A DNA stretch of 64,000 nt from Tyto alba (lineage: Eukaryota; Chordata; Aves; Strigiformes; Tytonidae), in the NCBI RefSeq assembly GCF_018691265.1, contig NW_024881322.1, positions 18,533,107 through 18,597,106 on the forward strand, given 5' to 3'. Made by a program: the position numbers and the translations under genes. Every line of letters starts with the position of its first letter. Within the stretch, counting starts at the first letter, position 1. Shown piece after piece: positions 1 to 62,885 of this stretch. The notes beneath the pieces were generated by a model. The model was not told the origin of the DNA. It did not search any database and worked only from the letters and a program-made list of their open reading frames with translations.

Positions 1-3460
<3,460 letters not shown>

Positions 3461-21413: not shown

Positions 21414-23308
21414 GATAAATGAAACTCCACAACAAGAAGTGTAACATTTTTGATGTAACGATCTTAAAGCCAGTACTTGATAAAGCACTAACTCTTGAAG
21501 TTAAAAACATTCGACACGTCCCACAAAACTTTTGGTTGGTATCTCCTAAAATACTGGAAGCATGCTTTCTGAAAGATTCTGCAGATGTTAAATATTCACA
21601 TCTTAATAATCTAAAGTGAGAGTAGTTATAGTACACTACGTACAAGTAATTCTCACCCCTCTGAAGATGCTTTACTGTTACCACAAATAAACATTCCCCA
21701 GACACAATGAATGACCTTTTGATTTTTATAAATCACAGTAAGAATCTGAGCATGCCAACCCCTAACAAAAGATGAACCTATCTATGATGTAATCCCAATT
21801 TAGAAGTGAAGATTACACTAAAAATGCTGGTAAAACTCTTAATTGAAATCTGTATTAGTAAGAACCAAACTCACAATAGCTGAAACTACAGTTGCTAGAC
21901 TTAATCAAAGACAAACCTATCCTCCAACAATTAAACAACCTGTTCAAACTGTTACATGTTCCTTATTACAGGGAGTGAGAATCTGAACTTCCAGCTCTGT
22001 AGCTAAAAGAAAAAAAAACTTTTATCGAGCTCTAGTAAAATAAGGATAGTGCTTTGAAAGTTAGAAATAAGTATCTTGAGTAATGTGTAAGTTTACGATC
22101 CTATTCCTACTGCATCTGTGCACAGACTGATTTTCTTTTGTCTGCTAACAATTTCTGAATCACCACGCATAACACCCGTTAACGTCAAATATGTACACGT
22201 GATGCCACAACACACCGATTTCTTCACCTTTACCCAACCATACATTCGTCGCCCAGGGACAGCTCTGCCCAGTACCCTCCTTCACACCTCTCCCCATACC
22301 CTCGTTTCAGAGAGTGCTCTGTATACCCCTGCTTGGCGACATTAGAGCCGAGGAAAAAAAAAAAAAAGAAAAGAAAAAAACCACAGGATTTCCAGCTCCC
22401 TACGAACTTTCTCGCGGCGCTCTGGATCGCACCATGCCCTTAATGACTGGGAAGTTCGCCGGAGCCACCCCCTCTCCCCCTCAGGCTCCTTCCCTGACCC
22501 AGGAACCTGCGAGGCCAGAGGCGGGCGGGCGGCGAGCCCCCAGACCGGCGCCGGTCTCCCCGCCAGGCGGGTGCGGACAGGCCCCCGCCCCGCCCCCCCA
22601 GCGCCAGTTCCCGGGTGGGCCGAGCACACTCGAGACCGGAGCGGTCCCGTCCGAGCCCCCACGGGAGCCCGCCTCGGCGCGGGGGGGGTGGGACAGCTTC
22701 CCACCGCTCTCCTCACGGGTTTCTGGGCCGGGCGCTCCGGGACCTCGCCCGGCGTGCGTTCAGGCACACGCACCCCCCTACACCCGCCACCCAGCCCTGC
22801 CCGAAACGCCCGCCGCCCCACGCAGCCGGCAGCGACGGGGAGGAGGGGAAGGAAACCGCCGGCTCTTCCCGGTCCTCCCTCTCCTCCCCCGCCCGCCGCC
22901 TCCCCCCCCCCCCCCCCCCCCCGCCCGCTCGGGGGGAGGGACGAGGAGCTCGCCCCCAGCCCGGGGCTGAGCTCCGCCAGACGCGGAGCGGAACGGGAGC
23001 CGTCGGCCGGGATGGACGGAGCCAACTTAGACAAAGGGCACTTCAGACTCCATGTCTTCCCCCCCCCCCGCCTCCCCGGTTGTCAGGGCCGGCAGCCCGC
23101 GTATCGCGTCCCCTCCCCTCCCCCCGCGCGGGAAGGGGCCGGGAAGCGGCGGCCGCTCCCCGGGAGCCGTCGCCCGGCGGCTGCCCCCTCCTCCCTTTCC
23201 CCCCCCCGCTTCTTCCCCCCCCACCACCGCCAAGGCGGCCGGTTATAAAGAGCCGTTCCCGGTGCCAACGCCCCGGGCCCGCGAGGTGCCGCTCACTCGC
23301 TCACTCAC

Positions 23309-23420
23309 CCGCCCGCCCGCCCGCCCCGGCCTCACGCCGCCGCCAGCTCCGCGCCGCTCTCCCGCCCGCCCTCAGCCTCCCGGCGGCCGGATTCACCCTC
23401 CCGGACCGAGCGCCAAACGC
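23309..23420 (-). other. EZH2: EZH2 non-coding exon 1 (predicted)
   Basis: On the minus strand, ATTGGGCCGCCGCGTTTGGC followed by GCTCGGTCCGG closely resembles what I recall of the start of human EZH2 exon 1. Transcription therefore probably begins within or just downstream of this block, near 23400-23435. I place the exon end at the best donor, GTGAGT starting at 23308 after a GCGGGCGG context. Other weak GT sites in this GC-rich run exist, so the 3' limit could differ by tens of bases. The exon contributes only 5' UTR. Confidence 0.55.
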
Positions 23421-23508
23421 GGCGGCCCAATCGGCGTCGCGCTCATTGGCGAGCGCTGAGCACCGCCCCCATTGGATGGACGCGGACGGGGGCGCCTCCG
23501 GCACCAAT
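23410..23508 (-). promoter_or_regulatory. EZH2: EZH2 core promoter: E2F site and four CCAAT boxes
   Basis: TTTGGCGC on the minus strand (23417-23410) is an exact E2F consensus. Four CCAAT/ATTGG boxes follow within 82 bp at 23427-23431, 23445-23449, 23471-23475 and 23504-23508, in both orientations. E2F plus multiple NF-Y boxes without a TATA box is the layout of cell-cycle-induced promoters, and EZH2 is an established E2F target. Farther upstream at 23775-23780 and 23785-23790 are TTTGAA and TTCGAA, matching CHR-type words, but their distance from the start site makes a CHR role uncertain. Confidence 0.8.
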
Positions 23509-25158
23509 CAGGCGCGGGGGGGGGCGGGGAGAAGGGCGGGACCTCTCGCCCCACGTGCGGAGGGGGAGGGTGAGGGGGGGTGAACTCTTTGTTCTCGCGC
23601 TGGCCGCGGGGGACTGGAGGCGGGGGTCGGCGCTTCCCTCCCCAGCCCCTCCGCGACATGGCGGCCCCCGCGCTGGAAACCCTCCGGCCGCCTTCACGCC
23701 GGAGGGAGGGGGAAGGAGGGAGGTGAGGGGATCGGTGGGCGCGGGGCGGGGCCGCGCCGCTCGGCGCTGCCGAGTTTGAATCAGTTCGAAAGTGGGAGCC
23801 GTTAACAGCCCCAACGGTCCCGCCGCTGCGCGCGCCGGAGGGCGGGGGGGGGGGGGGGGTGGGGTGCGCAGGCCTGTGGGGGGTTCGCCGGCTCTGGGCC
23901 GGGCTGAGGGCAGACGGGCTGCGCCTCACGCCGCTCCCCGCCGCCCCTGCGGATGTCGCATGCCTGACTCACTTCCCAGAGCTGCGTGAGGCGCCCGCGT
24001 CCTTTGACCTTTACTTACCCAAATGTTACTGGTATCGGCCTTTTTATTTTGTGTGTGGTTTGGGTTTGGGGGTTTTTTTTGAGCGTTATACCGTTCCCCT
24101 TGGCTTTCTCCGCCGAGCTGCACCCCGAGTGGTTTCCCCACTGTGAAAGCCCTGCCCTACCCTGCCGTGGCAGTGGTAATAAATCACAGCAGCAGCAAGG
24201 TGTCCACATCTGGCTTGGATCATGTTGCTTGTTATGTGCTGTCTCCAGGCTCTGAGGTTGCTATCAGTTTTCCCTCATTTCTAGTCTGTGAGACATGCTC
24301 ATCAATCTTGTTGCCCAGGTTGTGTTTAAACCTTGAGGATTGTGCTCCTTTAGTCCACTGATATCTCGCTCTTTGGTCACTCCAACCGTTTTTCATCTTC
24401 AGCGGTGAAAAGTAAAATTGTGCAGATAAGTTTCCTAACGGGGACTTTGGCCTTCCCTTGTAAGTGTATCCCTTTCCTGCGCATCCTGCCTTGAGCGCTG
24501 CTTCAGAGGCGCAGGGGAGCACGAGCCGCACCCTTGCTTCAACAGCTTGTTCCTGTCATCCTTCCTGACCAAATAATCAGCTCCCCTCTCCTTTGCAAAT
24601 ACCTTGGTCCGTCTTCAGGGTTGAAGTTCCGCAAGCAGGCAGCAGCCACCGTCATGAGGTCCGGAGTGATAGAAGTCTCTTGCAGGGGAAATTAATCACA
24701 AGTGCAACCTCGTTCCCAAATCGTGCAGTTGGCTTACATGTCAAATGAGGCTCAGTGTTATTCTACCTAAATGTGGTGTGCTTGTGTGCTTTTATAGGCT
24801 CTTTCTATATGTAAGTACTTAATATTTCCAAACTTCATCACATATTAGACTTGCAACGAGATCTTAAGAGTGGGCATTCCTACACCGTATGTTCTTTATT
24901 TACCTCATGGCCTTGAAAAGGGGTTTCTACTAGTAGCTTATTTTCATTTTAAATCTCTGGGGGTTTGTGAGTTAAGAGCAAAAAATGCGCCACAGAAATT
25001 ATTTCCTCTTACAGTTTACATGTCATACCATGTTAGACTGCCATACCCTTCCTCTCATTCCAGTGGAGTGGCTGAAACTGGAAGATTACATTAAAATTAC
25101 CACATTTGCAAAATAGCTGAATTTCCAGAAATTACTAATATTTGAATCTATTCTGCCC

Positions 25159-27790: not shown

Positions 27791-30700
27791 CCACGCTCAG
27801 AGGGTCCCTGCTAGAAGTTGCTCCTTCCCTGTCGTGTGACCAGCGGGCACCATCTGACTTGATGCGCTTGCCAGAAGACCTGGTGCCTGGGTACTTGCAC
27901 TTCTGAAGAGGTACCCGGGCAGGTGTTTGCAGTCAGGGTGCAAAGCGTGCACAGCGGCGAGGGTAGGTGTGCTGTCTGACGCCATGAAAAATAAACAGAC
28001 CACACGCATGAAAAAAGGTGTAAACAGTAAGTATGTTGCTAAACATAACCAGGATTTGATGAAGTGCTGTTACAGGAAGATGCCCACATTTCTGTGCCAT
28101 TGAGGGGCTCTCTGTGTCTGATGCTGTGAATGGTAGCGCATGCAGCTGGTTCTTAGCTCTGTAAAAGTATCCGTGCCCATCCCTCCCCCAGCGAGTGACA
28201 GAAAGCTACCTGGCCTTTCACTGAATGTTTGCCTCATGTATCGTGATAAAGGTATGTAACATGTTTTATACTAAGTGCTTTCAGCATGCTGGGCCGCCTC
28301 AGCCCTACCATACTGAGTTTAAGGAGATTTTGTTGAGGGAAGGAGATGCAGGATAAATAAAGGTGAAAGCAAGAGTGATGCGAACAATTAACTCAAACTA
28401 TGGCTCTGTATCAAATACAGGATATTATCTTTTTGGCTAAAGAGAAATGTTGCCGGAAGGAAAACTCTGGTGGTGTTTTTATACAATAACGGAAGCAATG
28501 TAGGTGATTTTCTATTAACTTTTTTTAACACGCAGAGATAAAGCTTATTGCATGTGATCACCCATTTCAGTTTGTGAAGGGGATTAATTGACTTCCCCTG
28601 GCTTCGATTAGAAATTAATTTTACTTTAAAAATTTCCTGTAAGTAATGGTTTTACTTTAAAGAATCTACTTTTCTTTATTTTGTGGAACCTGCTTAAGTT
28701 GTGTAACAAAAATACTTTCCCATCCTTGTCTGCTTTTTTGCCCTTTTATTTTTTTTCTTTACCTGACCTGCATTTACTGTTACATTCAAACCACTTAAAG
28801 GTCTAAATGGTATCCTGTAACAAAACTGCCACGAAAGCATATGCTTGAGAACTTAAATTTGAGAACCCCATCCCCATTTCCAAGTGTATTTGACAGTGTA
28901 GCTGTATGATACTGCTGAGTGTGCCACTCACAGGGGAGGATTTTGCTGCAGATTTAAAGGTTCAAGTGGGCATTCGTGAGTGTTGATGGATGGTCTCCCC
29001 TTGGGCCAAATCCAAGATTTGCTTGAATATTCTGTTGCTGAGGTGTCACAGTTCTTCAGTGGCAGTGGCTAAGTGACCCTAGCTGATGGACAGAGTTCAC
29101 TGACTCAATTCAAACATTCTTGTTCGGCTGAAGAAGGTACTTCTTCAGACAGCAAAGTGCAATACACATGTAGTGATGAATCAGGCTGTTTGAAAAAGTA
29201 AATGCAGCTGTGAAATATCTTTCTGTTTATCATTTCACCTCTCAGAATATTACTTCCAAATGTAGCTAACCTTCCACCTGTGTGTGAAATTTGCCATGCA
29301 TAGGTCTCCATTTTTAGCATCATTTACCCTTCCTCATTCTCTGATATTTATGGTATGCCTTACTTTCAGCTCTTCCTTTGCAAAGGTACTGTCCTGTTCT
29401 GTCCTAGAATTACCTAATCCTGACATCTAAAATAGTAGGAGGTATTTGAAGTTGCACTGACCCTACCTCCCTTTTTAAAAAATATAATAATGCATATCTG
29501 TATATACACATGACCTGACATTCTCAAGGTTAGTGAATTCATGAAGGTAAAAATGAAAATATGGTTTAGCAACACAAGCTTGATTAAACTGAAAAAAAAT
29601 CACCGATCTTCTCACCTTTACAGGAGAAGACTAGGAATACCTACACTTTGAAAGTGGATTTGATAATCTGTTAAATCTTGCCAGGACTAGTAAATTCTAT
29701 TGTCAAAAAAGTAAATTTAAGAAGATGTATGGTAAAGACTTTACAGTGAAGTAAAAATGTAATGATACACATCCACCCATTAAATAAACTCCATCTAATG
29801 CAAGTTATAAAAATAAGATGTTCTTCACAAAGGTTTATGGAGGTGTACAAAGTACAAAATATGTATCCTATTTGAATATCCTTCTGGGTTGTGTTAGTGT
29901 TTCTCATGATTCAGGAGCCTTTTCAAATGATAGTTTATTCCAGATTTCATCCCTTGGGTATGGGTTGCAGAAAGCTGCTGTCAAGTCCAGGAAGATATCA
30001 AGTTGCTGTCCCACTCCTCTTCCTTGTTTGCGTGTTTGTGGAGAGCCTTTAGTGAGTTGAGATGTTGGTCCCTACCAACAAAAGGCAAAGCCTTCCAGCA
30101 CCCCTGCCTTTTTGTTTTCCAGACTTAGCCCTTGATGAAAACATTCACAAATAAATGCAAATTTTGAAAAAGGATTACCCAGATCCATCCAGTACATTAT
30201 GTCAATGAGTTTACTTCCTATCTGTGAGGATTTCTAGTTATTTGGCAGTCTTTTTGCCAAATATGCAGTTCTTTATCAAATACATATCTCTCAAGATCAA
30301 AATGGTAAAAACAAAAATCACTCTACTGCTGGTTTGAGAAAGCTGTTACTGAGAAAATAATGTTCTATTTCTAAAATCAGAGGATGATAAGAGTTTTTTG
30401 TGCTTAATGACAGAAAAGGTCACCATTGCCGTGATTTATGTGCAGGTAGAAATACAGACAGACCTGTGCATGAAAGTCCATCACGCAGTGATGCAAGACT
30501 TTGTCATGAGATGGGTAGATGACATTACATTTTAGATGTCAGCTAAAAATGCCAGTCAGGTACATAATGGAAAGAATCACTGATTTGAATTTGTATCAAA
30601 CTTGTATCATAGAATAAAAAAGATTGTCAGTTTAACAATTTTAAAATGTTACATATCACTTTCCTCTCTGAAGCCTTCATGGTGGATATGAAACATAAGA

Positions 30701-46773: not shown

Positions 46774-46989
46774 ATTTGCTTATATTTCCCATCATGCACA
46801 TTTGTTGCAATCCAAGAACTAGTTCTGCCATCTGAACCGCCAAAGAAATGTGGCAAGGGGACTGAGAGATTATTTACTGGTGCTCATGATACAAAGTATA
46901 TCTTGTACATTCACGAGCTGCTTTCCTTGGATGCGCTAAAGAAATCATCCTAACTGTGGCGGCACAGTGTTTGAGAGGTTTATATAAAA
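46774..46989 (+). promoter_or_regulatory. Pol III type-3 promoter of the Y4 RNA gene
   Basis: Upstream of Y4 lies a full external promoter. TTCCCATCATGCACAT (46786-46801) matches the STAF/ZNF143 site at about -224 to -209. ATTTGCTT (46774-46781), one base off the octamer, sits 12 bp ahead of it. CATCCTAACTGTGGCGG (about 46946-46962) resembles the snRNA-type PSE at about -64 to -48. TATATAAAAG (46981-46990) is the TATA box, about 29 bases before the start. These factors recruit SNAPc, TBP/Brf2 and Pol III. The layout parallels the Y3 promoter in this window. Confidence 0.85.
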
Positions 46990-47009: not shown

Positions 47010-47105
47010 GGCTGGTCCGATGGTAGTGGCTTCACAGAAATTATTACTGTTAGTTAAACTAACCTTTCTATATTCCTCCCCACTGCTAACCTTGACTGGC
47101 CTTTT
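47010..47105 (+). ncRNA. RNY4: Y4 RNA (Ro60-associated Y RNA)
   Basis: The RNA starts GGCTGGTCCGATGGTAGTGG and ends CCCACTGCTAACCTTGACTGGCC plus oligo-T (47102-47106), closely matching vertebrate Y4. The lower stem pairs GGCTGGTC (47010-47017) with GACTGGCC (47094-47101) over 8 positions, including two G-U pairs; this stem is what Ro60 binds. The upper stem pairs AGTGG (47025-47029) with CCACT (47080-47084) and extends with wobbles; the upper stem of Y RNAs is linked to initiation of DNA replication. The internal loop differs greatly from the human one, as expected for Y RNAs. An upstream Pol III promoter and a T5 terminator support an active gene. Orientation and order relative to EZH2 match the human cluster. 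Confidence 0.93.
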
Positions 47106-47106
47106 T
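47102..47106 (+). terminator. Pol III terminator of Y4
   Basis: Five thymines directly after the closing GGCC of the Y4 lower stem form a standard RNA polymerase III stop; the mature RNA keeps a few of these Us. Confidence 0.85.
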
Positions 47107-50100
47107 AATGCCTTTTAGGCACCTGATTTTCCTAACAGGTTGGCCACCTCCGTTAGTCTGTAGTGACAGTGACGCTCTATCTTCTCAGATAAACTCTTTG
47201 TGCTTTGAGTGTCAGTCCTCACTACCTAATGTAACTTTTACAGGAGATAGTTCAGTACATAGTGCATTTCCCTCTGAAACAAAAGCGAATAGTCGTTCTA
47301 CGTATGCTGTAAGGAGTGAATTTCCAAATTTATAGGGGTTTTTGGCAGAAATAATAAAGCTATGATTCCAGGTACTTGAGCCATAACAGTTAACAAAAGA
47401 GACTACCTAAAAATAGAGACAATAAATCTATCTATCTGACCAAACTAAAATCCTAGTGATTAACCCCAGTTGTCTGATTCATACAATTTCCCAGGACATT
47501 TCAAAAAGCTCCTAAGCAATCGTACGTGTGCCAAACCACAGCCAGGTATCAGAGCAGAGACTCTGCACTCCAGTGGCAGGGGAGGCAAGACATCTCCTCC
47601 CGGCAGGTCTGGGCCCCTGACACTGCAGTGTGCAGCCAAGGCCCGCTGCAGTCAGTGCACCGCAGTGTTTTCTATAAGTGGGTAACAAAATAGTACCCTA
47701 CGAAGACTTGTTTTTTCACCCTCCTCTGCCATTTGTTACCAGTAACTGTTTTTTCTTTTTCCCGTAATGCTTAGCCTTTTCGTAAGATTAGCTGACAGCC
47801 TCCTGGTAATTTGTTACTTCACCAATATTTTATGATCTCCTTAAAGTATAACTTTATGTTTCACTCTTTTGAATGCAAAAGGATAGTGATGATGGCTTTA
47901 GATAAAAGGCAACAGGAAAAAATAGTACTTACTCCTGAGTAAGATTTAGGTGGTCAGTAAATGCTACCTAATCTGCAGAGAATATAATAGAACCAGGGAA
48001 ACAAAGACCTTTACTTTTAAGAAGCCAAGGAAAATTGGAAAGGAAATACTACAGTAGAAAAATGCAAGTTACACCCAGATGGGAGATGAGGAAAGGTGAA
48101 GAGTGTGAAGAACTTGCAGAAGCATTTCTCTCTAATAAGACCTACTAGTGTTCAGGAAAGTTGTTTTGTAGGGGAGGCCACACCTGCATGACTGATTTAA
48201 AGATGGATTTCTCAAGACCGAAGATTATTTGAAAAGGTGACTAGAAAAAAATTACATGACAGTTTAAAAAAAAAAAAAAATCCAGAAAATAAAAAATTCT
48301 CATCATTGAGAGCTGAACAGTAATTTAAGCCTTAGTCTTGAAGTGAACAGGATGCAGAAAGGAAAGATGTACCTACAGAATTCCAGGCTGAGCAATTTAA
48401 CCATTAGGTCAAATATTTGTATGGTAATATCATGAGTGTCTAAAAAATTCCCTTTCCTTTGATGCAATTCTCTCTGAAATTGAGGGTAATGAGGATATGT
48501 GTCTGTTATAGGGGACAGACATTAGAGAGAGAAGAGACTGTTAAGTGCTACTGCCTATTTGGTGAAAAAGGTGATGATGGGCTGCATTCACTGGGACAAG
48601 ACCCAAGTATTAAGCTTCAGCAAAAATCAGGGCAGTGCATATAAATTCCATCCATAAGGCGCAGTTAGCAAAAGTATTCTTGTCTAACAGAAATATTTGT
48701 AAATATGTGGCTTTCCCAATGTGTTCAATGATGACAAATTATCTACTTCGTCATCTCTGCCATGTGTTCTCTGGCTCTGTATCTCAGCTGCTGTGAAAAG
48801 GTCTGTCAGGGCAGGAGAATTGAAATGAAAATGGAGGGTTTTTTTACATTTTTGCCCTACAGAAGAGTTTCTAATGTTTGCCCTAAAAGCCATGCTTTAG
48901 ATTTGTTTATAACACTTATCGTGATCCAATTTGTAAGGTAGATATACCTTCCTAGGATCAAACTGTCACAGCTGCTCTACATAATTTCTGAGACACACAA
49001 AAATACTACCAAAAAAGATGGCCCTTTCTTCATCTGGCTGATTTTCTGAAAGTCTCAGGACTCAGGTCTGTTCCTCTGGCCATGTTTCAGTCATATTGAC
49101 AGTGGTGGTGATTTTACCAGTTGGACTTACAATTCCTCCTCATTCATACTCAGTGAGTTAATTACTTCACCTTGTTTGGTTTTATCTTGCTGGATATTTG
49201 GAGCAGCAGACAAGGAAGACAGACCAAGGGTAGGCATCCTTACCGATTCTCAGGTGTATCAGGTGAGCAGTCCATTGGCTGGGGTCACAGTCTGAGCAAG
49301 ACTGAGCAAACCAAGAAGGGGATATTCTGCCTGCTGCTATAAGACTTCAAAGTGCAGCCATGTCAAAGGTAAAATCATACAAAAATTCAAATGATGTCTT
49401 CACAGTGACTTTTGATTATTTTGTAGGGGCCTACAAAACACTAACGCGGACAAGATGACCCAGTGGAAGCCAAAATGATTCATATGATTACTGTTTGATG
49501 AAAAAAACCGCATGTAACAAGGTAGGAAACCTAAGTGGTGGATAACTCGGTGGAAATACCTATTCTATCAACAGCAAGGAACAGCAAGCATGCAGATTAA
49601 TCATTAGGACCTATAGAAAATGGAAATGAACACGTTTTATGGTGAACTATATGTTAAGTCCATTCCTCAGAAAGAACTTGGAATTCATCTGTGGTGTCTG
49701 AATAAAAACAAAGCAAAACAAAATATATAGGGAAAGTAAAAGGTTTGTGGAAAAGTTGGGCCTGTTTACAGAAAAGAGGAGGTTAATATATGGAGTTATG
49801 AGAGAAAGATGTGAAATTACAACCCAGAGGAAGTCAGTTTGGGACTCTACTTATTCATAAGATAAGAGGTGAGTTTTAACAGTAATGAAATATTGAAACA
49901 AGCCATATTTTACTTTGGGCATTGGTAATTTGTGCAAATTCTTGCCACGATATATCAGGGGTACAATACTGATGTGGCATTTATGTGGGTAATGATACTG
50001 CACAGAGGATTAAGCTAAGGAGGATCAGAAAGAATCCTTTTCTTGATTACAGGTTCTTGCATGCTTCTGTAGAAACTGGTCTCTTGTTTATTGATCTTGG

Positions 50101-51526
50101 TTATGAGCTATCATACCAGATAAATGTTCTCTCAGGAAAACTGCTTGTTTCTCAAAGTCTTTCATTCCTCAGACACATTGTGATTTTTTTTCCAGTGATT
50201 TTTAGTTTAAGAATTTTCTCTGTAGGACATTACATTGTTCTCCGGAAGCCAGGATGCTTCAGGGACCACCATGTAAAACTAGAGGAAACTCCCAGCTCAG
50301 CACAAAAAACTGTCAGTAAAACATGCTGAGTATATTTATTTAATTAATGTGGCTGTCCTCACAGCAATTGAGTGTCGGGTAGCATTTGCTAGGTAGCAGG
50401 GAAAATTGAACAGCAGCACATAAAGGAAAATTCTTTGCAGTTAGTTTGCTGGAACATATCCTATAGCTCAAAATGTTTTTGTCTTGTAATAGCGGTGCAA
50501 GACAGCAGAGATCACAGTTCTGAAATGCTTGGAAAGGTAATACACTTCACACACTACATTTCACTACATACATATTGCATTAAGGAGGATAGTGGTGCTG
50601 TTTTCTATAGCAAACTTTATCTGTACTAGAAAGTGCAAGTATTCTAACCAGCATCAATCTAAAATTGATGTTGTAAAACAGCCATGAGCCTATGCTACAA
50701 ACACACGAGACGGTTTATGCTTGTTACTGAACTAAATTCCTTGAATACAAGCAAAGGAATATTAATGGCTCTACATTAGATGTTCTCACCAGTTTCTACA
50801 TGAACTTTAAACTAACAGGTAAAGAGCAGAGATAGGAAAATGTTACTATTGTACCTGATAATCTAAAAGCTATGTTTCCAGGTATTCACTCAGCTGGAAC
50901 ACAAGTAATAAAATATGTTCTCACAGGCGAGAATCCAGCACTTTTAATGTAAAGGAATACTGTTTTTGAGGAGAGAAGACAACCACAAACACACGGGATT
51001 TTTGTACCAAAACCTGCTGTGGTTTGAACCCAAACTCAGAAGCAACTTAAATTTCTCATTCCAGTTTTAATGCAACTATTTTAGAAAAGGTTTACAATGC
51101 AAAGATATAAAGTCTAGAAGGAAAGTCTTCAGAATGAGAATCTCTGGCTGGAACTTGGATAACAGCCTACATTACTGTAAATGTAAACTGAATCCAAATG
51201 TAGGCCCCTTAGGTCATTCCTGACTGTTGTAGCAACATAAACATTATTTGTGCTTGAATATATGCAGTAACGTGTACGTATTTGCTTGCCCAGTGCTATT
51301 CAATGCCTTATTAAATTACATTCTGAAGGATGACATAACTTTACTTCACCTCTCTCAGAGGACTTTCAACTGAGGTTAAAATTTCTCATTAGCCTCGAAC
51401 GACACCTTAGAATAAAAATTTAAAAATTAAGCTGTTGGTTTAAGGGTAACATACAGATTATTATTTTCCCCTGATACAAAAACTATGAGCTTCTTTCCAA
51501 ACTTTGAATCCTTTCTTCCTAGCCTT

Positions 51527-51690
51527 TCAAAAAAAAATAAATAAAAAAAAAACAAACAAAAACCCAAACAAGCAAACAAACAAAACAAAACAAACCAAAC
51601 CAAAACAATCCAAAACAAAGCAAAAAAAAAAACCCAAAAAACAACAACAACAAAAAAAAACCCAAAACAAACAAAAACAAACACCAAGCA
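51527..51690. repeat. A-rich (AAAC)n-like low-complexity tract
   Basis: About 160 bp built almost only of A with scattered C, in AAAC, AAAAC and CAA units. The Lys/Gln/Asn-rich plus-strand and Phe/Cys-rich minus-strand frames here are artefacts. Confidence 0.9.
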
Positions 51691-54600
51691 ACCTGCTTTC
51701 ATGTTCCATAGTGCATTTTTGAAGTGTAGAAAGTAGCTGTCGTTTAGGTTTCTAGCATGCCAGATGTCTTATTTTGGATGTCAACATTAAACCCAGACTG
51801 CAGGGGAGATGAGAGGGAAGGCAAAATAAGAGTTAATTTTGTTTTGTTTGCTTTAAAGCCACTCAGCAAATCATTGAGACCCACTTTTGCAGAGGCATTT
51901 AGGCATACAAAATTAGGAGTCACTCCATATCTGCTTGACAAGGCACCAATTATCCTAATTTTCTTGTGTCTCCAGGCCTTGGCCTTTTCTAACACTATCA
52001 GTTTGGGGAGGGTTACTGAGAAAAGGGTGAGGAGGACTGGTTTCCACGTGTAGCACAAATATGCAGTGTACCAAAGCTTTTGCAGGAAAACATCTGTAAC
52101 AGAGTCAAGACAACCAGCACAGATGAAACACTATGTGGCCTCAATTCATCATTAAGCTCATAAACAATATTTTCAACATCAAAAGGAATAACTGCACCCT
52201 TACAGTGCTGCTGATACTTAAATATTTTGCTAGATGAGGACATCAGTTGGCAGTGTTAATAAATGAGATTTGAATAATCAGCTCTTTGCTGTAAACCATT
52301 TAACTGCTTACATACGGTCATAAACTGACTGTATAGTAAAAGGTTGTAACCTTAATAAAAACATGTAGTGTAAATAAAATCTTATGCAACAAGGCTTCTC
52401 TTATTTTATATCTTTTACTTGAAGGCCAGCTGAGTGCTAAGTACTGATAGTGAATATTATTTGAAACACTAAGTTAAAACTATGATGTGCTAAGCACTTC
52501 TCAGGGGCAACCTGAAATATTTACTAGGTGGAACAGAGATATTTTGGAACATGATTATATTGCATTCATGGCCATCATTTGTATTTTTACATTTAAATCA
52601 CTATTCTCACCATGACAAAGTCTTATTCCCTGATCAGGCCTACCAAAACAAATTCAATATAGATGTTCCAAATGAGAAATGTAACTGATATACCAGTTTA
52701 TACAGGGCATAACATTACAACTGTATTAAGATTTCAGCATCTGTGGGTTCCAGAATAAGATGACATGTCATCATAAATTAGGAAGTAGCAATATCAAGTC
52801 ATCTTTGGAAGAATGATTTGGATTAGAAAGGTGAAGTTCACAGACTAGCAGGAGACTTATTGGTAGACAATTTAAACTGAAATGAAAATTTTAGAGGGAA
52901 GATGGTCAGGGCTGTCAGAACAAAATAAACAGCAAGATAATTTCCTTGTTTGAAATTGATAGAAATCAATTTTCAGGTGACTTTTCCTAAGGTTGTCTGA
53001 ACAGGAGCAAATAAAATTAGCTTTAGTCTCTGAACAGATTAGTTTCAAGTAAGCTCATAACCATGAACTTTAAAAGTCTTTAAATATTTTGCCATGATCT
53101 CTTGCCTTTAGAGACAGGAAAGCTTGCTTCTCTGATTAATAATCTTAATTGCAACATTTAACTTATTCAGCATACTAAACCATGCTGTAGCTTTAAATCA
53201 GAAAGAGAGAAGTTTTTTCCCCATATCTGGAAATGCTTGAAAGACAGTATTTATGTTCAAATTTTTAATTACATAAATGCCAATTTATAGGCTTTCCTTT
53301 AGACAAAACAAAGACCCCCTGACCAACTACATTGTGTCCCTGTCTGATCACACCTTCAATCTCTGAAACACCCTGCCATTTACTACTGCATTTATAGACA
53401 CAAAGCAAAAGCAGAACAGCAGAGCGGTTGTTCTGCTACTACACATGGCTTCTGAAAATTCTGGAGTATTGTGGACTTATTAAAACTCCTGGGAAGAAAG
53501 GAGAAGCAATATATGCTAGCGAGAAATTTAGTTGGTCTCATGACATCACTTTGTCTTCAGCGGACACTTGCAAGTCTGTAATGAATTAAAGAGCTTGCCA
53601 GCGTGGTACAGAGAACAAGAAGAACCTATTTCAAAGAAAAGGAATGTCATACTGTCCTATTTAGTTGATTGATTTTGACCAGGAAGATCAGTCATCAGTG
53701 GGAAATTGGCATCACCAAACACTGGTTTTACTACCACTTGTTGGCTACAGTTGTGATGCTTTTTAAAACTGTATGAGTCCAGAGACATTCAGGAAAGCAT
53801 TATAGAAAATAAACCATGTGTTTCTCTCGGGAAATGTAAGGTAAAGGAGAAAAGAGATGTCTCCAGGATCTTATCTCCACCCTCTGCAACCTTATTGCCA
53901 GATTAGATCACTTGAAAGAGCCATTTGTTGGCTCCAGATTCCTATATGTTCTTTAGGTAGATTAAGTCTGTACGGAAATCAGGGAAGTTTTACTTCTCAG
54001 TGCTTTGAATGAGTATCCCAATGAACAAAATTCCTTTCTGAGGTATGAGCTACACTACTGTTTGCTAAATTCAATAATTTTGATCAAATATTTCTTCTCA
54101 TGGAGAAGTTTTCTTCTTGAGAAGAATGCTTTGACTAACAGAAGTTACTTTTCCCTTCCTACACATTGGAAGGAGACATCTCTTGTTCTTTATATTGGCA
54201 GATGTAAAGATGATGCAAAGACACTCATTGAATCATGTGTTGCCTTGCATTCCTCAAAAACGCTTGGGAATGTGGTTTACAGTATGTGTTGAAGTGTCAA
54301 GTGAGGTCATTTGTTGCTTTTAGTGAATGCCTGTATCCCCATCACTAACATTAGATGTTGAAATACTGTGTAGCACGCTGTATTTGGGCACACTGTAGAA
54401 TCTTTGTCAACTTTTTTCAGTCTGTAAAATTAATTAAAAGTAACCATACATAAATAATTATAAAGATTTATGTAGCAGCGTCAATTCTGCCACTTAACAT
54501 GTCAAATATTTTGATTGTAGGTTAAGTCTCTAAATGCACAGCTAAACACACAGGCAATGGATAATGAGAGAGAAGAAGTCAGCATTAAATTTAACAGGTC

Positions 54601-55133
54601 TAGTCAGAAGAGCAGTGGTTTGCAACAAACAAATTAACACAAGTTATACAAAGAAATCCTCCTGAGCTCTCATAAAAACCCTGTCCTATTACATCCAAAG
54701 TGGATCTCCACTGTAGATGGGGTCCTCTGGAACAGATAGCAAGGCTCCAGCCTGTATTATTACATGTATATTGAAAAAGGTAGAATAGAAGATGACATAT
54801 AACCCCTACTTTAGCCCTGAACCCCAGTTCATGCTGCAAGGTACCTAATTAGTGTGCTAAAATAATGCTAAAATAATATTGAATTTGAGGCCTGTGGAGA
54901 TGTCGCTGGAACAAGGCCAAAGATGAATAGAGGACTAATAAGCATGGGATCAATCTTGGTGTCTTCCTGTGGGCTGGCCCAAGGTTCCCATTGTCTGCCA
55001 GGGTTCACAACTACTTTGAGTCTTTGCCATGAAAAGGGATTATTCTTACAGGTCTAATCCTATAATCCCTTGAAAATCTCTGCAATAAATAAAAGGTGTA
55101 TCTGTGAAGGTAAGTAGGGCCCTGATGTGAAGC

Positions 55134-55138
55134 AACAC
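55134..55138 (+). repeat. Target-site duplication, left copy (first solo LTR)
   Basis: AACAC lies immediately before the LTR start TGTC. The right copy at 56029-56033 is AATAC: 4 of 5 bases match, the difference being one transition expected for an old insertion. Confidence 0.6.
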
Positions 55139-56028
55139 TGTCATGGTTTGAGCCTGGTTGGCAGCCTGACACCACGCAGCCACTCTCTCCCCATTTTCTT
55201 CCGGCAGTAAGAAAGGACAGAGAGCTAACAACACTCAACAGAGTAGGACAGTGAGAGGCATTGCCACATCTTGAGAACACCTTCCCCCCACCCCTTCCTT
55301 CTTCCCGGGCTCAGCTCTGCTCCCGATATCTCTACCTCCTCCCCCAGTGGCGCAGGGGCAGGGAATGGGGGGTGCAGTCAGTGCTGCTGCTACTTCCATC
55401 TTTGGTGGGGGGAGCTTCTGGAACTTCTTCCCCCCTGCTCCATCGTGGTCCCTCTCTCACAGGAGACAGTCCTCCACAAACTTTCCCTGACGTGAGTCCC
55501 TCCCACGACTGCAGCCCTTCCCGAGCTGCTCCGGCGTGGGACTCCCCCGCATGCTGCAATCCTCCCAGCGCTGAATTACAGCAGCGGGGCTGCACCTTTC
55601 CCACAAGGCCCTGGCCTTCTTCGGGTACAGCACCTTGATTAACCAGGCAAAAACCACAGGCCATAAATCAATGTCTGCTCCACCGCAGATCTCCATGGGT
55701 GGCAGGGGGGGCCGCCCTGCCGTCTCCCCACAGGATACAGGGGGGTCTCTGCTCCGGCACACCTCCCCCCTCCTTTCTTCCTCCGTTCCCCCACTGACCT
55801 TGGTGTTCACGCAGCTGCAGCAACTCCTCCTCACAAGTCCCCCTGCTCATCACCACGTCCCTTCTTAAATACGTTATCGCAGAGGTGCAGCTGATGGGCT
55901 CAGTTTCCAAACAGACGTGAAGCTGACTTGGAGCTGGGGGAGCTTCGAGAAGCTTCTCAGAGATGGCCACCCCTATAGCCCCCTCCCCTGCCACCAAAAA
56001 ACCCCACCACTCACTCAAACCCAGAGCA
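55139..56028 (-). mobile_element. Solo LTR of an endogenous retrovirus (older copy)
   Basis: An 890-bp element beginning TGTC and ending in a decayed GACA equivalent (GAGCA), flanked by AACAC/AATAC. It is closely related along its length to the LTR at 61274-62354. It is oriented minus: a TATTTAAG TATA-like box lies at 55871-55864 on the minus strand. At the place of the CCAAT box in the other copy, the sequence now reads GAGCCCATC, so the box is broken. About 110 bp that carries the AATAAA signal in the other copy is missing between about 55222 and 55224. No internal retroviral region is present, so this is a recombined solo LTR. The 5-bp duplication suggests an ERVL-like group, but the family cannot be fixed here. 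Confidence 0.85.
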
Positions 56029-56033
56029 AATAC
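56029..56033 (+). repeat. Target-site duplication, right copy (first solo LTR)
   Basis: AATAC follows the LTR end directly and pairs with AACAC on the left. Confidence 0.6.
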
Positions 56034-56514
56034 ATATGAAGATAGGGGTATGAAAACTTAAGGAAAGTAAAACAATCACTTTTAAGGGTGAAAACAGGGC
56101 TTGCTTCTAATAATGCATATTCACTTGCTGGAACCTGCCATAGCAATGGCACAAAAGCACCGAGAGGCAGCTGAGAGTAGCCCAGTTTTGCAACATGTTG
56201 AAGGAAATAAATTCCACAGCAAAGCAGATTCTGAAGTAGTAGCAAGTGAAATGGGTTCCAACTGTGATATAGTCCAAAAAGATGTTGGTAGATTAGGAAC
56301 TTGTTTGAAAAGCCTGGATACAATATTACTGATGTAAAACATGTGCAAATGAACTGTGTGACATAAACAAATCCCTTGCCAAACACACACATTTACAGCA
56401 TTATCAAGGTATTTCATAAAAATGAGAGGTAGCAAATAATCTCAGGGATCATTCCAAACTATGTGTGCATCCCTTGCATCATTGCATTGTAACTGATTTT
56501 ATACAATGGCACAC

Positions 56515-56571
56515 TTTCCCCCCCTCCCTTTCCCCCCCTCCCTTTCCCCCCCCCCCCCCCCCCCCCCCCCC
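56515..56571 (+). repeat. 14-bp tandem CT-rich repeat running into C26
   Basis: Two copies of TTTCCCCCCCTCCC (56515-56542) lead through TTT into twenty-six consecutive cytosines (56546-56571). It is strongly asymmetric and can form i-motif/G4 structures. Assembly length is uncertain. Confidence 0.9.
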
Positions 56572-58035
56572 TTTTTCTGCTCAGTAGGTTTATGTAGCTA
56601 AAAGAACTCTGCAGGAGGAAGAAAACCACTTTTGATTTCCTGACAAATCAGGAAATGTAAAAAGGTTCTCAGTTTGAGGAGAAAGCCCAATGACAACAAA
56701 TCTGGCTGTTTTTTCTGGCTGGACAGTACTCTCCCATGAACGAGACAGTGCTCTGATGCCCCTCCTGTCATACTAAGCTTTCTTTGACCCAGGTTGAACC
56801 TGTTGGGTCACCAGTACAATAGACTGATGTGTCTTCAGAAAGAGCAATTTGGATGAAGCTATGATTCTTCACTTCCTGGTTCAGAATATAAAAATTCTGG
56901 TCCTTAATGGGTATTGGAATGAAAGTACATCACTGTTTTGAAGGAATTAATCCATTAATTGTAGTACCATCGGTATACCGGTATTCCTCTACAATAAAAC
57001 TGAAACGTTTTCTTTTGGTTCCAACCTAGTATTATAAATACAGAGGCCAAATAGCCCACATTTTGAAATTCAGATATTATTCCAAAGTTTAGGAAATAAT
57101 TCCATCTTCTAGTCTGGCAGTCTGCTTGGTTTGAGAGCAAGAAATGTCTGTATTTTCACTTTTTATAGCTCAAAGAAGCCTGATAGGTCATAGACAGCAA
57201 GCTGAATTGAGCCTCTGGAATATTTTAAGCTAATCTCTCTGAAATCAGTAGGAGAGACACTTGCTTCCTCTAGAATTATTTAATGTACCCCTCAGATAAG
57301 GCAGTGAGCTACTGCACACACAGCAGTTTAAAGACAGTCTAAAATCAGGCTCCTGAGTATTTTCAGGGCAATTTCATCCCTCCCTTGTCTCCTCACTGCC
57401 CCTGTAGAATCGCACAGTGAACTCTCTGGGCTGAAAAAGTAACATTTTAAGTGTTGTTTGCCACTGTATCACTTTCCTGGATTAGCTGGGTTGATGAAAG
57501 GGAGAGGGTGGGAGTACGCAACCAGGGCATCAGGGAGAAAAGGTGCGACCTTAGCATCTTAGATTTAGGTCAGGAGAAGAGGCTGTAGAACTGCTTGCAA
57601 GGTCTCCTTTGCTAGGCACTCAGAAATGGAACAGTGAAAAGAACCGCCACACAACAAAAGAGCAGTGAGATGCTGAGTTTGGAGGGTAGAAGTACTCCTG
57701 CCCCAGTGCTGCAGCTAATTTCCCTCACGATTGTGCTCTTTTGGAAAGCTACACTATAAACTGTATGGTTGAGCTGATCCACATTAACCAGGGCCCTTCA
57801 AATATTATGTGCTTTTTTGGGTTTCAGAACTGAGGCCATTTTATTGCAGAGATGTGGGGGTTTGCTGCAGAAGCAGTTATCCCAGCACTGCTGAGGTGCA
57901 GGTGGATGTGGGAGTGGCTGGGACAGAAGGAAGATTCTTCATCCACTGATTTCATTTGCAAGCAAAGCATTTCACTGAAACTCTACGTTTTGAATGCATT
58001 CTTTCCTTAATACACTTTGGCTCTAATGTTGTCAG

Positions 58036-58063
58036 AAAAAAACAAAACAAAACAAAACAAAAC
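58036..58063 (+). repeat. (AAAAC)n microsatellite
   Basis: About five AAAAC units. It is complementary to the TTTTG run at 58415-58441, about 350 bp to the right. Confidence 0.85.
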
Positions 58064-58414
58064 AGACTTTTTTGAGGTATTTATTTTATCCCTAAAAGAA
58101 AAGTTCTGTTTTGCAATAATAGTTTAATCATTTCTTAGTAGCTGTTGAGATCCAGATCCCACACATGCACATTTGCTACTGGTCTCTCCATCTCCTCATC
58201 TACATCACTGATGTACTATGGAGCAGGGAGCTAAGGCTTCAGCAGCCCCTCTCAAACTGAAAGAATATATTCATATAGATAAGTGTGTGACCCTGCTCGT
58301 CTGTCTCTGGAGGGGCTGCAGATGCAGAAACACCGGTGCAGCACGCAGTACTCAGTGCAGGACTGCTCACATAAACCCTGCACACCCCACTTGTTAAAGA
58401 TTAGCTGAAAACAG

Positions 58415-58441
58415 TTTTTGTTTTGTTTTGTTTTGTTTTTT
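58415..58441 (+). repeat. (TTTTG)n microsatellite
   Basis: About four to five TTTTG units, the inverted partner of the AAAAC run at 58036-58063. It lies about 100 bp upstream of the Y3 distal promoter element. Confidence 0.85.
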
Positions 58442-58538
58442 CTCCTATCTCCTGTAATGTCTGCTTTGCTACTTGAACAAGAGCTAGACAATAGCACCCT
58501 TTCTTCATTAGTTTTCAATTTATGGCTCGAGGCTGCTT

Positions 58539-58751
58539 ATTTGCATGTCACTTACCCATCATGCAACGTTGTCCGTTGTTGCTTAAAGAAAAAGGTCTAC
58601 ACGAAACATATTCCACACTGGATTTTAAGAGAGATAAAGCTGAATTTTATTTTTTTTTAAGAGAAAACAGTAATCATTTGATTTTGCAAAATCAGAATTC
58701 TAGCTGTACCGTCATAACATAAGTGTGATAGCGTTCTCAGAACTATAAATA
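58539..58751 (+). promoter_or_regulatory. Pol III type-3 promoter of the Y3 RNA gene
   Basis: A perfect octamer ATTTGCAT (58539-58546) is followed 13 bp on by TTACCCATCATGCAACG (58552-58568), a near-perfect STAF/ZNF143 site. Together they form the distal sequence element at about -237 to -208. The PSE-like ACATAAGTGTGATAG lies at about 58717-58731 and the TATA box TATAAATA at 58744-58751. This is the complete layout used by U6, 7SK and Y RNA genes and predicts strong, ubiquitous transcription. The same spacing of the STAF site to the start (-224) is seen at Y4. Confidence 0.92.
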
Positions 58752-58775
58752 GTTCTTCTACAGAAAACTTGCACC

Positions 58776-58877
58776 AGCTGGTCCGATAGCAGTGGTATTT
58801 ATAATTAATTGATCACAGTCAGTTAAAGATTTCTTTGTTCTTTCTCCACTCCCACTGCTGCAATTGACTAGTCTTTT
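58776..58877 (+). ncRNA. RNY3: Y3 RNA (Ro60-associated Y RNA)
   Basis: The sequence AGCTGGTCCGATAGCAGTGG, the internal AATTGATCACAGTCAGTTA and AGATTTCTTTGTTC segments, and CTCCACTCCCACTGCTGCAA followed by TTGACTAGTC closely match vertebrate Y3. The lower Ro60-binding stem pairs 58777-58783 with GACTAGT (58866-58872), including two wobble pairs; the first base is A where human has G and cannot pair. The upper stem pairs GCAGTGG with CCACTGC. TTTT at 58874-58877 terminates Pol III. The intact promoter and stems argue for a working gene, not a retropseudogene; Y RNA pseudogenes lack such promoters. It sits between two solo LTRs. Confidence 0.95.
58874..58877 (+). terminator. Pol III terminator of Y3
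   Basis: Four thymines follow the lower stem; this is the minimal vertebrate Pol III stop, shorter than the T5 of Y4. Confidence 0.8.
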
Positions 58878-61268
58878 GCTGTTGATGTTCCACATATTTT
58901 ATAATATCTCCTGCAATTGAACATTATAGAAATAACATTTGTGTAGAGCTCCAACAGGTAGGACAAAGCAAGGATGTAGCTGCCAGGATTCAGGATTATT
59001 TCCAACACTACATACATGTAATTCAATTTTCCTCATCCTGTGTCTGCTTTTTTTAAGTGCTTTAGTGACTAACATTTTTCGTATGTCCCGTTCCCTTTAA
59101 TTTGTAAGATGACAGACTTTTTTGTTAGACTCTGATTTTCTGGAACAAATGAGGATTGAGTCAAGAATATATTTTTAAATCTTAATCCTTCATGGAATAT
59201 GCTTTCTTCCCCAATCTCTTTGAGACGCCAGTGCCTGCTACTGGATTTTTACTGTTGTTAACAATACAGGCACTGTGCTTCAAAGGCATTTGAAATTGTT
59301 ACTCTCTGCTGAAGGCAGAGGAGGAAATAGGAGTCACTTACCTGAGATTCTGCTTTAATTATGTGGTTTTTCATTTCTAATACATCATGCTCATAATTTC
59401 AAGCATGCTTTTCACAGATTAATGAAATTGAATAGTCAAAAGAATAAATAGCAAAAATTAAGTGATGACTGCCTAAACCTTTCACAACAGGACACAAGAA
59501 TTTCTGCTCTAGGTGCTTCAAGCAAATGTGCCATTTAATTATCAGAGAATACAGCAATTGAGAAAGGTGGGGGCTGTCATTTTATGCAGAAATATATTTA
59601 AGTTATGGTCATCATGAGCCCCAAATGTTTCTTTGATGATCACTTCCCACAGGTGGTGGCTCTAGGCTACAAGCTTCAAGCCATCTCAGCCCCCCTCTTT
59701 CTAGACTGGGGGTTTACGTGGTGGGTTTTTTTTTTTAAGTCAGTCAGCTGTGAGATGTTAATTGTGCTGAGAAGAATATATCCTCAGCCACTGCAGATTC
59801 ATTTTCCTGTAGGTTCTTTATATCAGTATTTCTCACCTTTTTGAAATCTGCATTTATTGTTCAATTATTGAAGCCTGCTGGCTAAAATGCTATTGTTCCT
59901 GTTTATTTTTCTTTTCCATTCCACCTGCCCTCCCCCCCCTATTTTTTTCCCCCTTGCTTTCCTTTCAGCTGCGTCTACTTTATAAATTTCTTATAGCCTC
60001 ACAAATATATAGTGTATGAACAAAATGTTCCTTTTTTGGACTGAGCTGCAGAGGCAAAGTTGCACTATACACTCCTTTCACCATCTCCACAACCTCCCTC
60101 TCACCGTGTCGGGAGACTGAACGTGCAAAGGTGGTGAAAGCTCACTTGTGCTCACGCAGTGCAACTGCACCGTGAGCTCTGCAGGCACAGCTCTGGAAAT
60201 CAAGAACCACGTACCTCTCCATAAACCCAAATGACATGAAAATACCGGTAGAAACCTGTATGCTGTCATAGATTTACATCTAATGTATGTATATATATGT
60301 ATATATATATATATATATATATTTGTTTTTTCCCCTCTTCAGGATTTTCTTTACCAGTTACCGCTTAGAAACCTACAGGTATTTCACTACATCCCTTCTC
60401 CAAGGGTGTGGAAGCTTTTTCTGAATGAGGGCCAAAGATAGCCTTCCAGTAACTCTCCTTTGCCACATATTGGTATTTAACTTAGCACTGTTAATCAGCA
60501 TGATAATAACTGTGCTCCATTTCCTGAGCTGGCGGCGGGTGTGGTGGTTGCAAATGCTGGGCTCTATCTCCACCACAAGGCCCTGAAGAACTTCCCACCC
60601 ATGACCCTTCCCCTCCCTCCTGCAGGGACGTGGCCCTTCAAAATCCCAAGGGGTGTGTGCTTCAGGGATAAAGCTGAGATCCTGGTGTCAATTATTGGAG
60701 TTAATATGCCAGGCACGCCTCTGCTGAGCTGCTGACCAGGCGCCAGCTGTCCACCCAGCCATGCCTGCCAGGATTCCAGCGGAGAGGCCGCCGGCCTGCT
60801 CAATGCCACAACACCCACCTCGGTGTAACGGGCGTTCTTGGCAGGTGCTTTGACAAGCTGGCACAGATTATGAAGCCAGTTCCAAACTCACCGTCGTGCC
60901 CTTTCTGAGGGAAAGGCGTTGCAAATGTGTGTGTGTCCCCCCCCCCCACAAAGGCCCCTGCTCGCCCTCACGCCAGCCCCGCTGCTGCTGCAGGCAGCCA
61001 TGCCTCAGTGGGCCAGGCTGCAAGGGGCAGGCCAGGGCCTGGGAGCCAGCGGCAAGCGGGGTGCCTCTGTGGGGTGCAGGAAGCGTCTCCCCTCTTTTTT
61101 TGACGTCGGCTTTCCCCCTCCCCCCCCATCACGCCTCCCCCGCTGCCCACCTGTCCTACTGGTGGCCCCACGTTGCTCTTCAGCAGGAGGCCTTGCAGCC
61201 ATTTTCTCTTCCCCGCCTCAGCCCTCGGTGCGAGGGGCTGCTGGGGCTGTGCTCCGGCCCGGCATCAG
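58878..61268. other. Intergenic region between Y3 and the second solo LTR
   Basis: About 2.4 kb with no recognisable gene. A (TA)n tract is at 60285-60321. From about 60530 the sequence becomes GC-rich, with oligo-C runs near 60939-60950 and 61117-61127. The open frames in that part have no known domain and overlap on both strands. Confidence 0.65.
60285..60321. repeat. (TA)n microsatellite
   Basis: Alternating TA with two TGTA interruptions near the left end. Confidence 0.85.
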
Positions 61269-61273
61269 TGCGG
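61269..61273 (+). repeat. Target-site duplication, left copy (second solo LTR)
   Basis: TGCGG directly precedes the LTR start TGTC and is repeated exactly at 62355-62359. Confidence 0.85.
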
Positions 61274-61468
61274 TGTCGTGGCTTGGGCCTGGTCGGCAGC
61301 CAACCGTCACCACAATGCAGCAGCTCTCTCTCCCTTCCCCTCCGGCAATGAGAAGGGACAGAGAGCCAGGCGTGGGGTCCGAGATAGGACTGGGATGGGG
61401 AAAAATCCCCCTTTTATGATCACGAGCAAAAGGCAGACTGGTTAGGGGAAGAAAAAAAAGAACATACA

Positions 61469-61474
61469 TTTATT
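61469..61474 (-). promoter_or_regulatory. LTR polyadenylation signal AATAAA
   Basis: The only clear AATAAA on the LTR sense strand, in the region absent from the older copy at 55139-56028. Confidence 0.6.
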
Positions 61475-61735
61475 ACAGACACTAACAACACTCAACAGAG
61501 TAGGACAGTGAGAAGCATTGCCACATCTTGAGAACACCTTCCCCCCACCCCTCCCTTCTTCCCGGGCTCAGCTCTGCTCCCGATATCTCTACCTCCTCCC
61601 CCAGGGGCGCAGGGGCAGGGAATGGGGGGTGCAGTCAGTGCTGCCACTTCCTTCATCTTCGGTGAGGGGAGTGTCCAAAACTTGTTACCCCCTGCTCCAT
61701 CGTGGTCCCCCTCTCACAGCAGACAGTCCTCCACA

Positions 61736-61871
61736 AACTTTCTCCGACTTGAGTCCCTCCCACGGGCCGCAGCGTTCCCCACACTGCTCCGTCATGGGTC
61801 ACTAACTTCCTCCGACTGGATTCTCTCCCACGACTGCAGCCCTTCCCGAGCTGCTCCGGCGTGGGACTCCC
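61736..61871. repeat. 68-bp tandem duplication inside the second LTR
   Basis: Two diverged units begin AACTTTCTCCGACTTGAGTC and AACTTCCTCCGACTGGATTC, and both run through CTCCCACG and CTGCTCCG. The older LTR has a single unit here. Confidence 0.7.
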
Positions 61872-62189
61872 CCGCATGCTGCAATCCTCCCAGCGCTGAA
61901 TTACAGCAGCGGGGCTGCCTTTTCCCATGAGACCCCGGCCTTCTTCGGGCACAGAACCTTGATTATTCCGAGCAGGAGCCACAGGCCATAAATCAATGTC
62001 TGCTCCACCGTAGATCTCCATGTGTGGCGGGGGGGGGCCGCCCTGCCGTCTCACCACAGGATACAGGGGGGTCTCTGCTCCGGCACACCTCCCCCCTCCT
62101 TTCTTCCTCCGTTCCTCCACTGACCTTGGTGTTCATGCAGCTGCAGCAACTCCTCCTCACCAGTCCCACTGCCCGTCACCACGTCCCTT

Positions 62190-62224
62190 CTTAAATACGT
62201 TATCGCAGAGGTGCAGCTGATTGG
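62190..62224 (-). promoter_or_regulatory. LTR promoter core: CCAAT and TATA-like boxes
   Basis: On the minus strand a CCAAT box is followed about 22 bp later by TATTTAAG, a compact retroviral-type promoter. The element could drive minus-strand transcription toward Y3 and, distantly, EZH2. Confidence 0.6.
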
Positions 62225-62354
62225 CTCAATTTCCCAAACAGAAGTGGAGCTGACGTGGAGCTGGGGGAGCTTCGAGAAGCTTCTCACAGGGGGCCGCCCC
62301 GATAGCCCCCTCCCCTGCCACCAAAAAACTCCACCACTCACTCAACCCAGGACA

Positions 62355-62359
62355 TGCGG
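62355..62359 (+). repeat. Target-site duplication, right copy (second solo LTR)
   Basis: TGCGG directly after the GACA end, identical to the left copy. Confidence 0.85.
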
Positions 62360-62885
62360 TCATGTCTGTGGTGAGAGGGGCTGTGGCTGACCCCTCCCAC
62401 TCTCCCGCCACGCGCTGTGGAATGTCTGCATTACTGCAGAGTTACTTAATAAAACTGAGGCAGCATCCAGTGCACGAGGAAAAACACCTGCATTATTCAT
62501 CACTGCATTCCGACAAATTGATAGTTTTAAAATTATTTTGCAGAATATGACTCTAGTCTGCTCCGCTTTCACAGGGAGTTTTCTTTTCCTGCTTTGGAAA
62601 CACAAACTTGATTCTTTTTTCTAACCCCTTCTCCCTCCCACTTGCCACATCCCTTGGGCAAGCACAATCATTTTTAAAGAAAGCCTGTTAAATAAGAGAG
62701 ACCCAGCAGAATCTGCTCTAGAGCCCCCTCAGCAGTCACACGCAGGGTCAATCTACGCTTTCATTCCAGCCTGCTGTACATCCCTGCCATCCCACCCAAC
62801 ACATCACTCCTGTTGGAATCATCCCAATGCACTCACACTGGCTGCCATGGCTGAACAGGGATCTCTTGCATAAATAGCATATTGG
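62360..62885. other. Short intergenic gap between LTR elements
   Basis: About 0.5 kb of mixed-composition DNA between the second solo LTR and the third LTR fragment. I see no gene or repeat family in it. Confidence 0.6.

What the first reader, a model, noticed from the sequence alone, without database searches (positions are those of the whole stretch)
47010..58877. Two intact Y RNA genes (Y4, Y3) in conserved synteny next to EZH2
Seen: complete Y4 and Y3 sequences with Pol III promoters, both plus strand, upstream of minus-strand EZH2. Known: human RNY5, RNY4, RNY3 and RNY1 lie between EZH2 and PDIA4, and birds are reported to have fewer Y RNAs. Inference: this is the ancestral locus, and Y1 and Y5 are absent from this side, at least within the window. 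Gene finders that look only for proteins would call the region empty.
Basis: partly seen in the sequence, partly recalled or inferred. Interest (0 to 1): 0.75.

Follow-up and report, generated by a model that had tools for sequence, protein, structure and literature searches.

The report
Bird Y RNA gene cluster, three genes

Summary
Rfam RF00019 matches window 47010-47105 (+, 69.3 bits) and 58776-58877 (+, 78.3 bits); no other Rfam family or place in the window reaches its cut-off. By sequence they are Y4 (78% to human Y4) and Y3 (84% to mouse Y3). Each has a TATA box near -30, a T-run terminator and, at -236/-237, an octamer plus SPH/ZNF143-type site; that pair has 2 matches in the window and 0 in 100 shuffles.

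No Y5 was found in the cluster, nor genome-wide within the partial searches that ran.

The locus reads EZH2(-) - Y4(+) - Y3(+) - Y1(+) - PDIA4(-). Gardner et al. 2015 (PMC4378963, passages read) report a conserved Y4-Y3-Y1 cluster in birds, with Y5 absent from all bird genomes studied but present in alligator and turtle. Real, functional-looking, already known.

The parts
47010..47105 (+). Y4 RNA gene
   Evidence: RF00019 69.3 bits; 75/96 identical to published human Y4; fold z -3.79
46774..46798 (+). distal element of Y4: octamer (one mismatch, ATTTGCTT) plus SPH/ZNF143-type site, start at -236
   Evidence: 0 of 100 shuffles
46981..46987 (+). TATA box of Y4 (about -29)
   Evidence: read from the sequence
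47102..47106 (+). Pol III terminator T-run at the end of Y4
   Evidence: read from the sequence
58776..58877 (+). Y3 RNA gene
   Evidence: RF00019 78.3 bits; 86/102 identical to published mouse Y3; fold z -3.54
58539..58565 (+). distal element of Y3: octamer (exact ATTTGCAT) plus SPH/ZNF143-type site, start at -237
   Evidence: 0 of 100 shuffles
58744..58750 (+). TATA box of Y3 (about -32)
   Evidence: read from the sequence
58874..58877 (+). Pol III terminator T-run at the end of Y3
   Evidence: read from the sequence
3260..3460 (-). open frame that holds the first coding exon of EZH2 (the matched part is residues 7-49 of the frame)
   Evidence: best E 8.4e-21 to EZH2 chains in the PDB
22101..24300 (.). 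CpG island, presumed EZH2 promoter, about 19 kb upstream of the first coding exon
   Evidence: promoter role inferred

Best explanation
The window holds Y4 and Y3 of the ordinary avian Y RNA cluster, whose third member, Y1, lies 4.7 kb past the window end. Shown from sequence: three intact-looking genes in one orientation between EZH2 and PDIA4, each with an octamer + SPH/ZNF143-type element at -234 to -237, a TATA box near -30, a conserved Ro60-type lower stem with the bulged C, a GUG/CAC upper stem and a terminal T run. Inferred from the family: each is transcribed singly by Pol III (type 3 promoter, Oct-1 and ZNF143 helping SNAPc). La would bind the U tail and Ro60 the lower stem. The RNAs would serve in Ro60 RNPs (RNA stability, stress) and, through the upper stem, in initiation of DNA replication. 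Y5 was lost on the bird lineage; the rest is the old tetrapod cluster.
For: RF00019 hits. The closest of three published paralogues is the expected one for each of 3 genes: Y4 78%, Y3 84%, Y1 91%. The octamer + SPH pair, with up to two mismatches in all, occurs exactly 3 times in 133,893 bp, once per gene at -236, -237 and -234. In 20 random sequences of the same dinucleotide make-up, 8 have one and 12 have none; the stricter form has none in 100 shuffles of the window. EZH2 on the left and PDIA4 on the right. A TROVE (Ro60) domain exon is encoded in the genome. Print: conserved Y4-Y3-Y1 cluster and no Y5 in birds.
Against: No expression data were available, so transcription is inferred. The PSE was not placed: the best ungapped three-way motif lies at unequal distances and had no control. 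The stems are not perfect: the first lower-stem pair of Y3 is A-C and one upper-stem pair of Y1 is C-A. Y1 folds less convincingly than the other two (z -2.68; 3 of 200 shuffles fold as well). In human cells the RNY4 octamer is not occupied by POU2F1 (passage in PMC3499247), so Oct-1 use at Y4 may fail here too. The genome-wide Y RNA search scored only 51 of 231,982 candidates.
Confidence: 0.96

Rival explanations
1. One reading: the locus here holds only Y4 and Y3, with Y1 and Y5 both absent.
For: Only two hits inside the window.
Against: Y1 at C62:18601797-18601908, 76.2 bits, same strand, 91% to mouse Y1, with its own octamer + SPH element.
Confidence: 0.01
2. Y4 and Y3 here are retro-pseudogenes of Y RNAs, as are most Y copies in mammals.
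For: Such copies are common in mammals (892 Y RNA annotations in human), and a few unlinked, probably pseudogenic copies occur in several birds.
Against: They sit in the cluster with upstream promoter elements, which a reverse-transcribed copy would lack, and stems and terminator are kept. The genome search found only the 3 cluster members (51 of 231,982 candidates scored).
Confidence: 0.02
3. A decayed Y5 persists between the EZH2 promoter and Y4, for instance the weak match at 30546-30637 on the minus strand.
For: A model built from 6 Y RNAs (none of them Y5) gives 17.5 bits, E 0.14 there, with a Y-like 3' end.
Against: The match lacks the upper stem, has 28% G+C, lies on the opposite strand to the other Y genes and no octamer + SPH pair was found near it. 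E 0.14 is within chance for a roughly calibrated model.
Confidence: 0.03

Closest known systems
Avian Y4-Y3-Y1 cluster (Gardner et al. 2015, PMC4378963; passages read)
   Same: Three paralogues Y4, Y3, Y1 in this order; no Y5; three copies as in chicken.
   Different: No difference found. The passages seen give neither strands nor neighbours (EZH2 is not mentioned in the main text), so those two points were not compared.
Mammalian Y RNA cluster (human chromosome 7q36, four genes; passages read)
   Same: Y4, Y3 and Y1 in one cluster; neighbours EZH2 and PDIA4 as in human (human neighbours recalled, from no call).
   Different: Y5 not found here. Y1 is on the same strand as Y3 and Y4, whereas in the eutherian prototype Y1 is inverted (pig paper PMC4124155, passage read).

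Membership tests
Y RNA (Rfam RF00019) | match to the covariance model over its full length above the gathering score | tested here: met
   69.3 and 78.3 bits in the window, 76.2 bits for Y1, cut-off 38, model positions 1-96 in each
Y RNA (Rfam RF00019) | Ro60-binding lower stem with bulged C and internal bulge, UGGUCCGA ... UUGACUAG | tested here: met
   3 of 3 genes, and no other place in 133,893 bp with up to 1 mismatch in each half; one terminal pair of Y3 is A-C
Y RNA (Rfam RF00019) | upper stem with GUG-CAC core | tested here: met
   the three core pairs are standard in 6 of 6 aligned sequences (3 from this genome); a flanking pair is C-A in Y1
Y RNA (Rfam RF00019) | type 3 Pol III promoter (distal element, PSE, TATA) and T-run terminator | tested here: inconclusive
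   distal element in 3 of 3 genes (control for the two in the window); TATA and T run read in 3 of 3; PSE not placed securely
Y RNA (Rfam RF00019) | Pol III transcript bound by Ro60 and La | not testable with these tools
   no RNA or CLIP data; a TROVE domain match, positions 2-179 of 442, is encoded in the genome
Bird Y cluster Y4-Y3-Y1 without Y5 | three genes in this order in one cluster | tested here: met
Bird Y cluster Y4-Y3-Y1 without Y5 | no Y5 in the genome | tested here: inconclusive
   none in the cluster; genome-wide only a partial RF00019 search and a Ro60-stem pattern with exact halves

The most novel reading that the evidence does not exclude
The three bird Y genes keep a distal promoter module at a nearly fixed distance (octamer + SPH/ZNF143-type site at -234 to -237), while the Y4 octamer carries a mismatch and Y1 lies in a CpG island. 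This would fit Y4 being driven without Oct-1 in birds, as its unoccupied octamer suggests for human, and Y1 being a constitutively strong copy. It is a promoter-level detail of a known cluster.
Probability: 0.2. Interest if true: 0.2.

Novelty: already known. Interest (0 to 1): 0.08.

Why it matters
It gives one more contiguous example of the bird Y RNA cluster and corrects a false absence that came from the window edge. It does not change what is known.

Tried and rejected
Y1/Y5 absence: Y1 found beyond the window, so rejected for Y1. Y5 in the cluster: cmscan with E up to 5 over window 22000-64000 and up to 1 over 70 kb to the right, an unfiltered search with a 6-sequence model, a Ro60-stem scan with mismatches and a scan with published Y5 primer ends. 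None gave a Y5. The best near-miss on the Y5 5' primer in the EZH2-Y4 interval (43901, 6 mismatches of 22) equals what the Y4 gene itself and a place at 89517 give and has no Y-like surroundings by eye.

Genome-wide Y5: a pattern with exact Ro60-stem halves gave 61 matches; the tool's control, the pattern read backwards, gave 2,852, so the pattern alone proves nothing. By eye on the 61 printed rows only the two window genes carry GTGG at the right offset; Y1 is too long for that pattern's gap. One row (C36:8750731) begins like Y5 for a few bases. It and one other (C41:19542475) were fetched: no Rfam Y RNA match with E up to 10 and at most 4.3 bits with the Y model, so both are taken as chance. 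A Y5 with a changed stem would escape these searches.

Other weak Rfam matches (mir-500, CrcZ and others, all below their cut-offs) are taken as chance. A loose pattern was badly chosen, close to chance (25 against mean 18.8; 8 of 100 shuffles reach it), and not used. The two 2007 papers on Y RNA evolution (Mosig; Perreault) are not held and are known here only from other papers' words. A genome-wide look for further octamer + SPH pairs did not complete.

Full report
Observation. Rfam RF00019 finds exactly two matches above its cut-off in the window, at 47010-47105 and 58776-58877, both plus strand and both over the full model. A permissive scan of 22000-64000 adds no further Y RNA with E up to 5. 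Both fold more stably than shuffles (0 of 200 as good). Against three published Y RNA sequences (mouse Y1, mouse Y3, human Y4, from the key resources table of PMC6060611, passage read), the first is closest to Y4 (75/96) and the second to Y3 (86/102).

Surroundings. The window is G000:C62:18533107-18597106 of a 1.25 Gb assembly in 70 contigs. The genome has at least 150 matches to the feather/claw beta-keratin family (150 of 298 candidates scored), which with the genome size points to a bird; the species is not known and this is inference. On the left, the open frame at 3260-3460 (minus strand) matches the N-terminus of EZH2, and the CpG island at 22101-24300 is its likely promoter. To the right, the nearest thioredoxin-domain exon found lies on the minus strand 16.4 kb past the window end. 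That one was tested and is PDIA4: best PDB match Protein disulfide-isomerase A4, E 5.9e-68, next A3 at 1.9e-61.

The missing gene. A search of the whole assembly with RF00019 gave 3 matches, all in this cluster (only 51 of 231,982 first-look candidates were scored). The third, C62:18601797-18601908, starts 4,691 bases past the window end. A separate scan of 70 kb to the right found it as the only Y RNA there with E up to 1 (76.2 bits). It is 103/113 identical to mouse Y1. Its fold is less striking than the others (z -2.68, 3 of 200 shuffles as good), and one upper-stem pair is C-A. So the inference 'Y1 absent from this side' was an effect of the window edge.

Promoters. A composite of octamer and SPH/ZNF143-type site (consensus recalled), with at most two mismatches in all, occurs 3 times in 133,893 bases on both strands, at -236 (Y4), -237 (Y3) and -234 (Y1). 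Of twenty random sequences of the same dinucleotide make-up, 8 hold one and 12 none. A stricter form gives 2 matches in the window and none in 100 shuffles. TATA boxes lie at about -29, -32 and -30, and each gene ends in a T run (read). The PSE could not be placed. In human cells RNY4 is one of the few such genes with a single activator, and its octamer is unoccupied (PMC3499247, passages read). The Y4 octamer here also has a mismatch, which is suggestive only. Y1 lies in a CpG island (68101-69000 in window-extended coordinates).

Y5. None was found in the cluster with the Rfam model, with an unfiltered model of six Y RNAs that holds no Y5 (next best after the genes 17.5 bits, E 0.14, at 30546-30637 minus, taken as chance), or with a Ro60-stem scan (3 places, all known genes). 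Genome-wide, an exact-halves Ro60-stem pattern gave 61 matches against 2,852 for the backward control, of which by eye only the two window genes have the upper stem. One match that begins like Y5, on C36, and one on C41 were fetched and are not Y RNAs by either model. Y5 loss is therefore supported, not proven.

What is known. Gardner et al. [quoted passage not shown] Their table gives 3 Y RNAs in chicken, 2 of them confirmed by RNA-seq. They also report extra unlinked copies in several birds, probably pseudogenes; none was found here in a partial search. [quoted passage not shown] here all three genes are on one strand, which fits the older arrangement. That EZH2 and PDIA4 flank the human cluster is recalled; a search for papers naming them together with RNY genes found two listings, neither with PDIA4, and in one of them EZH2 appears only in the reference list. 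Nothing I found departs from the passages read.

Mechanism. By membership in the family (review PMC4726728, passages read), the RNAs would be made by Pol III, bound by Ro60 on the lower stem, and act in RNA stability and, through the upper stem, in initiation of DNA replication. The genome encodes a TROVE-domain exon (80.5 bits). These steps are inferred, not shown here.

Verdict. The cluster has the members reported for birds and is already known. Interest is low.

Noticed in passing
L002:1501-1612 (C62:18601797-18601908; window-extended 68691-68802): Y1 RNA gene on the plus strand 4.7 kb beyond the window, in a CpG island, with octamer + SPH element and TATA.
   Followed up: yes
window 61200-62400: GC-rich stretch that looks like an interspersed repeat: by eye a row on contig C19 resembles part of it, and a 68-base unit repeats at 61732-61865. 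Possibly an LTR; only observed.
   Followed up: no
window 30546-30637 (minus): Weak match (17.5 bits, E 0.14) to a model built from six Y RNAs, with a Y-like 3' end but no upper stem; probably chance.
   Followed up: partly
window 51528-51683: Long degenerate CAAAA-type simple repeat between Y4 and Y3.
   Followed up: no
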